NCBI RefSeq assembly: GCF_000003815.2
Contig: NC_049983.1
Coordinates: forward strand, 23,302,753-23,366,752
Direction: 5' to 3'
DNA from: Branchiostoma floridae
Lineage: Eukaryota; Chordata; Leptocardii; Amphioxiformes; Branchiostomatidae
Length of the DNA stretch: 64,000 nucleotides
How positions within the stretch are numbered: the stretch's first letter is position 1; the number at the start of each line of letters is the position of its first letter. The notes below the pieces were generated by a model, which worked only from the letters and a program-made list of their open reading frames with translations, ran no database searches and had not been told where the DNA came from. Positions 17,801-23,800 of the stretch are shown here, piece by piece. The position numbers were made by a program, and so were the translations under genes.

Positions 17801-20800
17801 GTTGACGGCTTCGATGTTCAGGTAAAAGGACTCCACCTTACAACCTGGACAAACAGCAACATTGTTAGTAAACTTACTTCACAAAATATGAAACTGAGGG
17901 CCAGCAAGACACCTCGAAGACAATAATGAGAGAGCTTTGAATTAGATGGCGCTAGCGCTAACTCAAAACCACTGTGAATATTTCGTTCACTACTGCGAAA
18001 TTAAATCCCAGTGAACTTTTACAGTACTAGAGCACAGCACATGAATACAGTGATCTGAAAAGTTGTTTGACTTACCATAAGCCATGGGAGTCAGCTTCAT
18101 GACAGTGTGCAGGGGCACTTTCAGATAGGGAAGATCATCTGGTAGAAGAGTAAAGATAAATAGTCAGTAAATTTGTAGCATTGGCTCAAACAATGCAAAT
18201 ATCTCATAGCTCATGCATGATACATGTTTAATACAACTGTACAAAACATGCCAAAAAGGGTGATAACAGATGTTATCTAAAATGTCTCACCATTTACAAA
18301 ACCATATCCAGTTGCTTGAGTGACTGCTTTTAGGCGTATCTTATTACCTGGATGTCTAGCTTTCACCAACGTAATTGTGCAAGTCCATCCAAGCTATACA
18401 AAATGCAGTATTTTGGGTGGACACTTACACACTACGCGTATTGTTCTGCAGAACTAAGCAACACACTGCAAGAAAGTAAAGATGCCCTGACCTGAGTTTT
18501 TATCCAGGAAGTACGCCAGCAGACATCTCATGACAGCCTGGTGACAGATGACCAGCACGTTGGTTTGTCTCTCCAGCTCCTGAAGAGGGTGAACACGTCG
18601 GTCAAATCGTCTCAATCTGTGTCTGAATCTCATACTTATACAAATGTACCAGTGAAAGATTTTTTGCTCGGATCATAGTTCTACATGCATAAAATTATCA
18701 TACAATCATGTACATGTAGCATATCTGATAGACTTTCAGAACACACAGAAAACATATTTTTAAGTTTTAAAAGAACTTGTTAGAGTACTTCTGTGGACCC
18801 CTGACCCCATATCATAAACACATGTACATCAATTCTGACCATGTGTGCAGCACAGGCTACCCTGATTCATGGTTTAAAGCGTGCTTGAACACTACATACA
18901 GCACTTACCATAATCACTGGTTCCAGGCGAGCCACCAGGTCTTGGTACGACTGTGGGGAAAAAACACAGTTATTTAGAGTGTTGGTCACTATTTGAAACA
19001 CTAAGTAGAATCTTGGAATTAACTTCTGAAAAGATTTCTACAGATTTAAGCATTTTAAGATTTTAAAATATTTCCACCAGTTTAGAAACCACAATAAACA
19101 GGGACTGATTCTGCTGTTGGTCAAATATACATGCAGCCTTACAAGCACTACATACTAAATGACTTATGTCTATATTTTTTGTGCTCATGCAACGGCTTCC
19201 AAATGTGCTAAAATTTTTGTTGAGTTGCACATGTTTGCATGTTGAAATGCAAAGAATGCAGTAAGGAAAATGATTTTGCGAATGTCAAGATGAAAAGTTA
19301 TCAATGTTTAAAGGCTGAAAATAAACGAGGATGGCCTTGACAGTGAAATATGGAAATTCTTTAGTCCTCTTTGTGGCCAGCATTCACTTACAATAGATCC
19401 AATAGATAACCATCCTTCCTTTTAAACAACCAAGTACTTACTATCTTCACAAGTGAGCAATGCTATGAGTATGAAATTACACTAACAGTGAACAAAAATA
19501 ATCAAAAATTCTAAGCATTCTCACAAATGTCAGAAAGTAATTAATTTGTATTCCTTCCGTTCATTATTGCCTGTTAGTATTTTTCGATTTCTTATTCGTA
19601 CTATTCATTTCAATTCACACAAACTCTTTATATAAATGGTCACAAAACAACCAAACCACTGCAACACAACAACAACAACAACAACAATGGATGGATGAAC
19701 AGACCGGCTGAACGTGGCGGCGGAAAGTGCAATTAACTGTACAGTACAAGTTACATGTACGTCCCTCTATCAAGAATGAGACGGTACAGATCTAGAGAAC
19801 TTCAATCAGATGACATAAGGTTCACGCCACATTTTAGCAAGAGAAAGGGATCTAGCACAACATTTTAGGGCGTTTGAGTCATGGCTGACTTATAGGACCT
19901 GCTTTGACACGTCTCTTATTACACATTCAAACCACAAATTTAGAAAGGACATTTGTTTGGACTACAATTACAAGTTTAAGATGTTGCTTTTGGAAGTTCC
20001 TATAGAATGTAAAAAGCACCAGACATTTGAGTAGGTACATCTGTTCTTTAAATTGAAAATAAAGAATTTAGAAGAACAACTTTTTAATCAAAAGGAGAGA
20101 GAGCAGAGAAACTGCAGCTGAGTTGTGTAGGAGATGGACTAGCACTAAACAATAGCTTTGACATATTTTAAACAACAACATCAGTTAGAACTAACAAGAA
20201 CAACTCTTTCTCTTAAAGAAAAAAGGGATTTAAAACAGTCCTGGACTGAGGTAAAATGCAGAAATTGTAGTGAATGGTGCGAAAGATGGGATAGAGCACA
20301 TGACACCAACTTTGACAATTTCTTGGGGCTGTCTTGAAAAAAGAGTGAGATGCTATGGTCAAAGCAGAGATGGTGCTGCTAAAGATGGAACAGCGTAACT
20401 TAAACACCAGTTTTTTACACCCTTCAAGCAACTGTACGTTACGAAGTTACGAAGCGAGGGGGTGAGGGAACGGCAGAACAGATGACAGAGGGTTGTTATG
20501 ACGACGAGGCTCACCTCCCCGGAAGGGTGTGGCACGTGATACTTGTCTCCGTCCCGTTTAGCCAGCTGGGCGGGAAACTCGCGAGCTATTTCCGCGTATG
20601 TCATCTCCTCCCACTTACCCTGCAAATTCCAGCCACACAACATTGTACTGCAGTGTCGGGAGGGGGAGGATAGGGGGAGCTGCTGCACTACCCTTCTGCA
20701 CGTGTGGTTCACCCCGCAAGGTTTTGTTTTCAGTCCACTTCTTGGGACTTTTGTCTATCATTTGTGAGCTTTCCGTGCACCAAATTTCCGACTTAAAGAA

Positions 20801-23800
20801 TGTTGTTAAAAATTGAAGTCTCTTATCATGGAAATTAAGTTTTGTTTTGCCAGCCAACCTTTTTGCTAGTATCTATTTGTAAGCTTTCGATGCACCACAA
20901 TTTTACAATCATAAAAATATAAAAACAAATAGTATGTTTTGAAAGTGGAAATACACTGATTATCACCATTAAAATAAAAAGCACTTCAATCGATTTTCTA
21001 CATCAATGCTCCTACTGTAGCAACTACAGTAAAAGCTCAATTGTGCAAACTACAAGAGCTTTCACTCTGACAACTTAGATACTACACAATTGCCAAGGTG
21101 CATGTACTTGCTTTGATCACAAGAGTCATGCCTGTACTCATCTTGAGAGGAGCTACAACACACCTTGCTGAGGAACACAAGTGCAGTAAGGGAGATACAG
21201 CGGAGGCACACCTCTGCCTCACGGGGGAACCAACTAACTCGCTAACTAACCACGCATCCCACGACACGACTCACCTCCCCTCGAGGGTACCGGTAGTGGT
21301 ACTTGTCCTGATCCCTCATTGCGAACTCCTCTGGGTATTTCTCCTGGATCTCTTCATAAGTCATTTCCTCACACACACCCTGCAGCACGGTCATAAGGAA
21401 CATAAAGGTAGGTATTCCAACACTGCTCTGGATACAGAAATCACCAGGTACTGACCACTGTGCATTAGCCTGGGTACCAACCGGATAGTAGCTCGCTCTT
21501 GGTTTGGTTTTGATACAGATATCCATTAGTGACTAATATTTCACTATTCTTCCGGGTGATTTGTAGAGAATCACCAATTCTAGACGGAATGATTTGCACC
21601 ATCTCACACCGCACCATCGCATGTGTGGGGGTTCTTTAACGTGCATGGGGTATGGCTCTCCCCAGACACGGGACCTCCATTTAACGTCCTTTCCGAGGGA
21701 CAGCCCTAGCCGAAGCTAGGCACTCATTTTCACCTGAGTTAAGTGAGGAAAGTTGTGTAAAGTGCCTTTCCCAAGGGCACAAGATCGGTAACATGGCAGC
21801 CAAATTCGAACCCGCAACCTCTCGGTCACTGGCCGAACATGTTGCCGCTGCGTCACACAGTCCCACGGCGGCTCTGACTTTTATACAGTCGCTTAATTTC
21901 TGCTGTTCCGTCTGGGAACCTTAACATCGTCCAAATTTTGGATAAGTGTGCTGATTGGTCACATGAGCGGATAAAGGAATGAGCTCGTGCGAACAGGCAT
22001 TCCAACACCCGAAATTCCCTCTGTCAGCTAGTAGGAGGCCTGTTGTCATTGAACGAGTGCTCTAGAGCCCATTCCTTGATTTGCTCATTAACTTTCGTCA
22101 TCACCAAAAGGTTTGAATGTGCAGGTCTCCAGAAGGGATAGCAGATCTGAAGCAAACATAGGAGCGGACTACTATCCGGATGGTACCCAGGCCAACGGTG
22201 CCGTGGCCAGTTGTTGGCAACTTCCAGTCATGATAGAATTGATCAGTAACCGTTTAGATTATTTGGCATCATTTTTATCAAACATCTCTTTGCTTATTGT
22301 GGTATTGTACCTCACCGGTCACAGTAAACCGGTTATACGATTTTTATTTTAACTGATTGAATAGATTTTAATCACAAGGGTGTGATTTTTTGTTTTAAAT
22401 CGATTTACTTTTTTTTTTGGTAGTTTGGTTGGAATACCTAATACTAGAAGCATGCACTACTTTGCTATTGTCTCCCAACCAAGCAACTAACTACAGAAAG
22501 GGGCAAAGATTTTGGTAACAATACAAGTTTATATCATGATCATAAAGTAAAGCAGTCACATATAAGGTACAAACGCTTGAGGATACATACTGAGACTATA
22601 AGCATACAGGAAATAGGAAAATTGCAAGGAAAACTTAAATTTAGGGTAAAAATCCGTAAAACTCACCGCATCGATCTCGTTGAGAGCCTTCCACTGTTCG
22701 ATGGGTGCGTGAAACCCGCCCGCAGTCTCAATGGTACGCTTGAGCTGACTGGTCCACACCTGATGCAACAAGACAAAGCACAATCAACTGGTTGTCCCAA
22801 AACCCCAGCTAGCGAGGGACCTTCAGGAGAGCCATAAGCCTACCATGAATCCAATGTATCTGGAACAGTAGATACCATTAGACATACGTACAGCCCTAAC
22901 TCTGGCTTCCTTTAAGAGAATTATACAGTAGCAGAGAGAACCAAAACAAACAGATTTGGTCATGGAGCAGATCTCACTTTTATGTATTTTGTACCATACA
23001 TGTGTTAAGATATACGTATAGACTTACTAGGACTTTAAACAATGTAAATTGTATCTATGTAACATACTTTGTCTGACCCTCTTACATTTTGTATCTCTCC
23101 CCTTATGATCTCAATGAAAAGTGGCCTGCAGGCTGATTTCAGCTTCTCATGAATAGATAAAGATTCACATACAAACAAACAAACAAACAAACAAACCCAC
23201 CTTCAGGTTGTTGACGTCCTGTTCCTCCATGAACTTGGCCAGCGCGTTGGCGAACTGTCGCCCATGGAAGGAGAGGGAGGAGTCCCCACCGATACGGCCC
23301 TTGATGTTCAGCTCACTCTCACCATGCTGAATGGATGTGAGAAGACAGTTATAAATGGTATGAAAATAACATCTGTTAACTGTAAAAAGTAGGCAAAGTA
23401 CTGTAAATGTGAACAAAAAATCTTGAAACCTGCAATGTCCAAAATTCAACACAGGACTCTAGCAAAGCACCAGATTTTTCTGTCATCTTGACTGCAGTAA
23501 AACCTATGCCCCTGTTCAATCAATCTGGTTTGATACGAAAGTTTTTCATATCATAGATTTCATAACACACCAATTTTGCTGCTGTAGAGAACGGATGACT
23601 ATAGTTTTCTTTCAAAATCTAATGAACAACAAGTTCTGAAAATAGGGCAACGACAGAAACTGGTGAGAGACCTCGTTTATGTCTAGATTATGTTGTGCTA
23701 CCGACAGCAGAAAAACATGACATTATCTCTAGGCGATTGACCAGTGGATTCTCCTTACCCGTGTCAGGTAGATGCTCCTGGGGAGAACGTGGATGTTCAT

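What the first reader, a model, noticed from the sequence alone, without database searches (positions are those of the whole stretch)
20515..21379. Mutually exclusive duplicate exons in the bisphosphatase domain of PFKFB
Two exons of exactly 105 nt with the same phases encode alternative versions of the segment that binds fructose-6-phosphate. Both keep MTY, the Arg in RD and the Lys in DKY. Version 2 replaces the basic residue two positions before the end of YRYP with VPHP. From memory of the rat liver enzyme this is the Arg360 position, implicated in substrate/product handling. One gene could therefore make enzymes with different kinase-to-phosphatase balance, something vertebrates do with four paralogues.
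Basis: partly seen in the sequence, partly recalled or inferred. Interest (0 to 1): 0.82.

Follow-up and report, generated by a model that had tools for sequence, protein, structure and literature searches.

The report
Twin-exon pairs in one PFKFB gene
A single animal gene for the two-way enzyme that sets the sugar-burning signal fructose-2,6-bisphosphate carries two pairs of alternative twin exons, one in its kinase half and one in its phosphatase half, so it could make several enzyme versions by splicing.

Summary
On the minus strand, 21379-21275 and 20619-20515 are homologous 105-nt, phase-0, GT-AG exons of a PFKFB gene with an open frame. They encode alternative versions of bisphosphatase residues 331-365 (rat-liver numbering, recalled): 19 of 35 residues identical, YRYP versus VPHP. 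Two neutral-drift nulls are rejected. In the held 513-Mb genome the kinase family matched only this locus.

Including both or neither breaks the frame, so productive transcripts must hold exactly one. For the reported pair the sequence does not enforce exclusivity: 105 is a multiple of 3 and RNA pairing shows no clear excess. Its version-2 acceptor is weak, with a frame-breaking competitor AG 28 nt upstream.

Best reading: regulated alternative exons, up to 2x2 isoforms, version 2 changing phosphatase substrate/product handling or its coupling to the N-terminal hairpin. No transcript, related species or assay was available: use, exclusivity and effect are inferred. New member of a known kind.

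The parts
21275..21379 (-). PFKFB exon 11 version 1 (canonical), 105 nt, phase 0, ...YRYPRGE
   Evidence: acceptor 6.00, donor 11.45; 31 of 35 identical to PFKFB1
20515..20619 (-). PFKFB exon 11 version 2 (twin), 105 nt, phase 0, ...VPHPSGE
   Evidence: acceptor 3.86, donor 10.17; phmmer matches PFKFB structures, best E 7.6e-5
31719..31782 (-). PFKFB exon 4 version 1 (canonical, kinase domain), 64 nt, (K)[21 protein letters not shown]
   Evidence: acceptor 1.89; AG-free zone 107 nt, longest of 18 exons, next 56
31001..31064 (-).
   Evidence: BLOSUM 50, next best 6, of 176 candidates; acceptor 12.19
22667..22759 (-). constant exon 10, ends ...NEIDA (loop with the catalytic Glu, recalled), phase 0
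18909..18950 (-). constant exon 12, [14 protein letters not shown], phase 0
20620..20650 (-). weak acceptor region of exon 11 version 2; competitor acceptor CAG|T with first exon base 20647 (score 4.76) would shift the frame and stop after 10 codons
   Evidence: sequence; scores
14750..33121 (-). PFKFB gene from the P-loop exon to the stop codon, continuous reading frame over 15 joined exons; the first coding exon was not located
   Evidence: one stop, at the end; Pfam 6PF2K 328.7 bits and His_Phos_1 142.1 bits

Best explanation
[quoted passage not shown] Two of its internal exons have been duplicated in tandem and kept as alternative exons: exon 4 in the kinase domain and exon 11 in the bisphosphatase domain. 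Splicing picks one twin of each pair. For exon 4 this is forced, because 64 nt is not a multiple of 3 and both-or-none transcripts stop early. For exon 11 the choice must be made by splicing regulation, with version 1 as default and version 2 as the weaker, regulated exon. Version 2 of exon 11 keeps the substrate-loop anchors (Tyr338, Arg352, Lys356; roles recalled) and the PxGE motif but loses the Tyr-Arg-Tyr before it, including the Arg360 equivalent. I expect weaker handling of fructose-2,6-bisphosphate/fructose-6-phosphate at the phosphatase site, or looser coupling to the N-terminal hairpin, and so a different kinase-to-phosphatase balance. Shown: homology, frames, splice dinucleotides, protein-level constraint on the pairs, no second kinase-domain locus found in the held assembly. 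Inferred: use in transcripts, exclusivity of exon 11, any biochemical effect and its direction.
For: Equal length and phase, GT-AG, no stops, no gaps in both pairs. Neutral nulls for exon 11: 0 of 20000 runs reach 19 identities; with version 1 constrained and version 2 free, 1 of 20000 reaches it and 0 with an open frame (same result with another seed). For exon 4 the second null is reached with an open frame by 31 of 20000. Domain scores are close for both versions: His_Phos_1 142.1 vs 138.6, 6PF2K 328.7 vs 323.0. In a same-length scan of 14 exons only these two have twins (top z 7.6 and 6.4; the other twelve 2.1-3.9); a gapped scan agrees. Both-or-none exon 4 transcripts stop early. [quoted passage not shown] here 19 of 35. 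PFKFB3 Arg355 lines a site beside the active site and hairpin (PMC6937325 passage).
Against: No transcript or related species could be examined. Exon 11 version 2 has the second weakest acceptor of 18 exons (3.86) and a better-scoring competitor AG 28 nt upstream (4.76) that breaks the frame. It has no yTnAy branch-point match in the stretch scanned, but neither have 4 of the other 17 exons. A strong donor-like AGG|GTAAGT (10.12) sits at its first base. Version 2 differs at 8 of 23 positions invariant in PFKFB1-4 plus version 1; exon 4 version 2 at 5 of 11 invariant in PFKFB2-4 plus version 1, and it lowers the best phmmer score from 257.8 to 243.7 bits. The codon-position pattern alone is reached by 701 of 20000 runs of the fairer null. 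Exon 11 double inclusion stays in frame. Intron-intron pairing: best A-B duplex reached by 4 of 8 shuffles, best B-C by 1 of 8; A-C (-29.1 kcal/mol, the strongest) had no shuffle control. A deltaproteobacterial relative has Glu at the Arg360 position, so that Arg is not universal.
Confidence: 0.7

Rival explanations
1. Exon 11 version 2 was once an alternative exon and is now a relic that is no longer spliced in: the reading frame survives, but the acceptor has decayed.
For: Weak acceptor 3.86 and a better-scoring competitor AG upstream; 8 of 23 family-invariant residues changed.
Against: No stop or gap in 35 codons, donor intact at 10.17, constraint visible at protein level. Decay would have to be recent.
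Confidence: 0.13
2. Exon 11 version 2 works as a poison exon: the upstream AG (first base 20647) or the internal donor at 20619 gives frame-shifted transcripts that lower enzyme level, rather than a second protein.
For: Competitor acceptor scores 4.76 against 3.86; reading from 20647 in phase 0 reaches TAA after 10 codons; donor-like site at 20619 scores 10.12.
Against: A poison exon needs no protein-level constraint over 35 codons, which is seen. No transcript data.
Confidence: 0.09
3. Both exon 11 copies can be included together, adding 35 residues in frame; the exons are then not mutually exclusive.
For: 105 nt each, same phase, 655-nt intron between, no exclusion device found.
Against: A second copy of the substrate loop would be expected to disturb the phosphatase fold (inference); the five alignments to solved PFKFB chains shown (of 22 matched sequences) are gap-free across this segment.
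Confidence: 0.05
4. Assembly artefact: version 2 is misplaced sequence or a mis-joined allele.
For: None beyond the general possibility in an outbred animal.
Against: The copies are 58% identical in DNA (61 of 105), far from allelic; their outer flanks are dissimilar; a second pair of similar divergence (34 of 64 nt) lies in the same gene.
Confidence: 0.02

Closest known systems
PKM (PKM1/PKM2) and PFKP tandem duplicated exons
   Same: Glycolytic enzyme genes with homologous alternative exons that change a residue binding a sugar-bisphosphate effector (PMC9741552 section 10, read)
   Different: [quoted passage not shown] here the changed segment lies in a catalytic bisphosphatase domain, and a second pair lies in the kinase domain
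Ketohexokinase KHK-A/KHK-C
   Same: Homologous alternative region beside the ATP site (PMC9741552 section 10); splice isoforms differ strongly in affinity for fructose (PMC11332825 passages)
   Different: One pair, single-activity enzyme, catalytic Arg kept in both; here the Arg360 equivalent is lost
Vertebrate PFKFB1-4 paralogues
   Same: Different kinase/phosphatase ratios in different tissues (PMC6131595 Table 1, passages)
   Different: Four genes plus N- and C-terminal splice variants (passages). PFKFB occurs 0 times in the main texts of four papers on duplicated or orthologous exons (PMC9741552, PMC5740500, PMC9013439, PMC8379844); their supplements were not seen
Multi-cluster mutually exclusive exon genes (insect Dscam, myosin heavy chain)
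   Same: Several independent duplicated-exon clusters in one gene multiply isoforms (Dscam: abstract in the listing; myosin multi-cluster recalled)
   Different: Arrays of more than two exons per cluster (recalled), and not bifunctional enzymes

Membership tests
PFKFB bifunctional enzyme | 6PF2K kinase domain with P-loop GLPARGKT | tested here: met
   PF01591 328.7 bits (exon 4 version 1) and 323.0 bits (version 2)
PFKFB bifunctional enzyme | Histidine-phosphatase domain with RHGE, NEIDA and CHQA motifs (motifs recalled) | tested here: met
   PF00300 142.1 and 138.6 bits; motifs in the translation
PFKFB bifunctional enzyme | Both activities in the version-2 protein | not testable with these tools
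   needs an assay
Mutually exclusive (tandem duplicated) exons | Adjacent homologous exons, same length and phase, GT-AG, no in-frame stop | tested here: met
   both pairs
Mutually exclusive (tandem duplicated) exons | Protein-level constraint on the pair | tested here: met
   (pairwise test within one genome; present-day constraint on version 2 alone cannot be separated)
Mutually exclusive (tandem duplicated) exons | Exclusion enforced by frame (exon 4 pair) | tested here: met
   both or none gives early stops
Mutually exclusive (tandem duplicated) exons | Exclusion enforced by frame (exon 11 pair) | tested here: not met
   105 nt, multiple of 3; the published class also holds pairs without frame enforcement (PMC5740500 passage: 60% of clusters have lengths not divisible by three)
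Mutually exclusive (tandem duplicated) exons | Exclusion by competing RNA structures (exon 11 pair) | tested here: inconclusive
   best duplex A-B -25.5 (4 of 8 shuffles reach it), B-C -27.7 (1 of 8), A-C -29.1 kcal/mol without control
Mutually exclusive (tandem duplicated) exons | Transcripts with exactly one copy | not testable with these tools
   no RNA data held
Mutually exclusive (tandem duplicated) exons | Conserved pair in related species | not testable with these tools
   states that the genome has no relatives here; the other collections hold prokaryotes, viruses and plasmids

The most novel reading that the evidence does not exclude
A single PFKFB gene uses two independent twin-exon switches, one in each catalytic domain, to make a 2x2 set of enzymes in which kinase and bisphosphatase are tuned separately: a splicing-based counterpart to the four vertebrate paralogues.
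Probability: 0.35. Interest if true: 0.72.

Novelty: new member of a known kind. Interest (0 to 1): 0.55.

Why it matters
PFKFB sets fructose-2,6-bisphosphate, a main switch between glycolysis and glucose synthesis. If one gene tunes both of its opposing activities by exon choice, it shows internal exon duplication and whole-gene duplication as alternative routes to the same control. It would also give natural variants that test what the YRYP arginine and the kinase QCAL segment do.

Tried and rejected
Chance homology: rejected. Simple neutral decay: rejected by two simulated nulls, though a recent loss of use is not. Third copies or further twins: none above the plus-strand control (the unlocated first exon, the 31-nt cassette and the last exon were not tested). 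RNA docking/selector pairing: inconclusive, 4 of 8 and 1 of 8 shuffles reach the best A-B and B-C duplex; A-C had no control; the exon 4 pair was not tested. dS could not be computed; dN 0.37 (NG86). Gapped DNA alignment of the exons is weak, 10 of 300 shuffles reach it. Viral contigs: 2 pattern matches, no relative. Plasmids: 7 records, all under 60% identity. Prokaryotic genomes: 37 pattern matches, two relatives, one with YRYP, one with YEYP. Paper searches, rows seen of rows found: Arg360, 2 of 2 and 3 of 3; PFKFB or 6-phosphofructo-2-kinase with mutually exclusive exons, 20 of 39, 0 of 0 and 10 of 36; amphioxus, 6 of 6, 8 of 8 and 8 of 8; tandem exon duplication, 15 of 366; bisphosphatase domain, 10 of 59. 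No title or abstract start in these rows describes this pair. Structure prediction was not tried, because spliced proteins are not letter for letter in the window, as the tool asks.
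Full report
What is there. The minus strand of 33121-14750 holds a PFKFB gene. Fifteen joined exons give one frame ending in ...[12 protein letters not shown], with 6PF2K and His_Phos_1 domains. The first coding exon was not located. In the window's own assembly (513,431,437 bases, 431 contigs) the 6PF2K family matches only this locus, in 4 exon pieces (6 candidates scored). The search is exon by exon and scores the best candidates, so "single gene" holds for the kinase domain of this assembly. 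Assembly size and an OTU1/YOD1 neighbour fit that, from recall.

The reported pair. Version 1 (21379-21275) and version 2 (20619-20515) are 105 nt, phase 0, AG-exon-GT, 655 nt apart, without gap or stop. They share 61 of 105 bases and 19 of 35 residues; differences fall 11/11/22 on codon positions 1/2/3. Ungapped 35-nt windows inside the exon have 14-25 identities, the first 35 nt after it 17, and windows further out 4-12.

Is it more than decay? I simulated random substitution from version 1 to the same DNA distance. The mean is 9.8 identities, and 0 of 20000 runs reach 19. In a fairer null version 1 changes only silently and version 2 drifts freely: 1 of 20000 reaches 19 identities, none with an open frame, and none reaches the observed BLOSUM score (repeated). 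The pattern over codon positions alone is less telling: 701 of 20000 runs have as few changes at positions 1 and 2. Both nulls start from version 1 as ancestor. So version 2 was under protein selection for much of its life; whether it still is cannot be told from one genome.

What version 2 changes. Of 23 positions invariant in PFKFB1-4 plus version 1 it keeps 15, including Tyr338, Arg352, Lys356, Pro362, Gly364 and Glu365 (rat-liver numbering, recalled); it changes 332, 333, 345, 348, 354 and the block 359-361. The Arg of YRYP is PFKFB3 Arg355 in PMC6937325 numbering: the paper's Glu322-Ala325 loop is the EIDA just before this exon, and counting on puts the Arg at 355 (my derivation). That paper lists Arg355 and Glu360 among the residues of a channel near the N-terminal hairpin and the bisphosphatase site. 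It also says that the hairpin controls the phosphatase, and that its deletion in the liver enzyme raised the bisphosphatase/kinase ratio up to 12-fold (passages). A Myxococcales relative keeps YRYP and a more distant deltaproteobacterial one has YEYP, so the Arg is conserved but not universal.

A second pair. A scan of all same-length, stop-free AG..GT segments in the window for 14 of the gene's exons found twins for two only: exon 11 (z 7.6) and exon 4 (z 6.4); the other twelve have top z 2.1-3.9. Exon 4 of the kinase domain (31782-31719) has a 64-nt twin at 31064-31001: [22 protein letters not shown] against [22 protein letters not shown], 12 of 22 identical with the boundary codon, codon-position differences 7/7/16. 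The drift null is reached with an open frame in 31 of 20000 runs, so this pair is good but weaker evidence than exon 11. A gapped protein scan of 14000-47000 shows the same two pairs (scores 57 and 102); all other non-self matches score 37 or less, against a plus-strand control of up to 40. The twins share WLEGEG and are one residue shorter than PFKFB2-4, which points to duplication after the split from vertebrates (inference). Version 2 loses the QCAL that PFKFB2-4 and version 1 share.

Splicing logic. Exon 4 twins cannot be joined or both skipped without an early stop. The canonical exon 4 has the weakest acceptor of the 18 exons (1.89) and a 107-nt AG-free zone, the longest of 18 (next 56); its twin has a strong acceptor, 12.19. 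This looks like a regulated choice with a distant branch point (inference). Its densest pyrimidine tract ends 27 nt before the exon, but six of 18 exons have their densest tract more than 20 nt away, so that alone is not special. The exon 11 twins have strong donors (11.45, 10.17) and weak acceptors (6.00, 3.86). Version 2 has a 19/20 pyrimidine tract ending 40 nt upstream, then a competing AG that would give a stop after ten codons, and a donor-like GTAAGT after its first base. These features fit a repressed, regulated exon; equally they could be early decay. No exclusion device was found for exon 11; the RNA pairing scan is inconclusive. Splice scores use recalled human-like weights.

Function. 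Domain scores barely fall with version 2 (138.6 vs 142.1; 323.0 vs 328.7), so both look like folded, working domains (inference). [quoted passage not shown] I commit to altered phosphatase handling of fructose-2,6-bisphosphate/fructose-6-phosphate and so a shifted kinase/phosphatase ratio. The direction (higher ratio) is a guess from loss of a positive charge. Vertebrate isozymes are listed with ratios from 0.4 to 710 (PMC6131595 Table 1, passage).

Known or new. A 2002 study is cited as finding tandemly duplicated exons in about 10% of animal genes (PMC9013439 passage). Neighbouring segments of similar length, homologous, in frame and without stops, GT-AG favoured, are the published prediction criteria (PMC5740500 passages). 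So the kind is known. I found no report of such exons in PFKFB in the rows seen of the searches named (open-licence papers only). Public gene models of this species may already show these isoforms; I could not look.

Noticed in passing
31719-31782 and 31001-31064, minus strand: Second twin-exon pair, in the PFKFB kinase domain, 64 nt each; taken up in the report.
   Followed up: yes
16171-16201, minus strand: Candidate 31-nt cassette exon near the 3' end; read by eye, its inclusion would replace the conserved C-terminus by [12 protein letters not shown] and a stop.
   Followed up: partly
47227-48201, plus strand: Open frame with OTU1/YOD1 domains (OTU, UBX-like and zinc finger) beyond the 5' side of PFKFB; human PFKFB2 and YOD1 are neighbours (recalled), so this may be old linkage.
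   Followed up: no
21465-22195: Inverted repeat arms of 63 nt, 71% complementary, 605 nt apart, in the intron before exon 11 version 1; looks like a small mobile element.
   Followed up: no
32668-32975: Tandem repeat, 122-nt unit, 2.5 copies, just beyond the donor of the P-loop exon.
   Followed up: no
20613-20621, minus strand: Exon 11 version 2 starts with a strong donor-like site (AGG|GTAAGT, score 10.12) right after its acceptor; could mark recursive or abortive splicing.
   Followed up: partly
10496-10981 and 59145-59483, minus strand: Open frames with a MOV-10 N-terminal match (28.4 bits, cut-off 27.4) and a NUDIX match.
   Followed up: no
54286-54732: Repetitive array with a repeated peptide in three open frames, two on plus and one on minus.
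   Followed up: no
L001:2001-2546: A Myxococcales MAG contig encodes a bisphosphatase domain 54% identical to the animal one, with YRYP.
   Followed up: no
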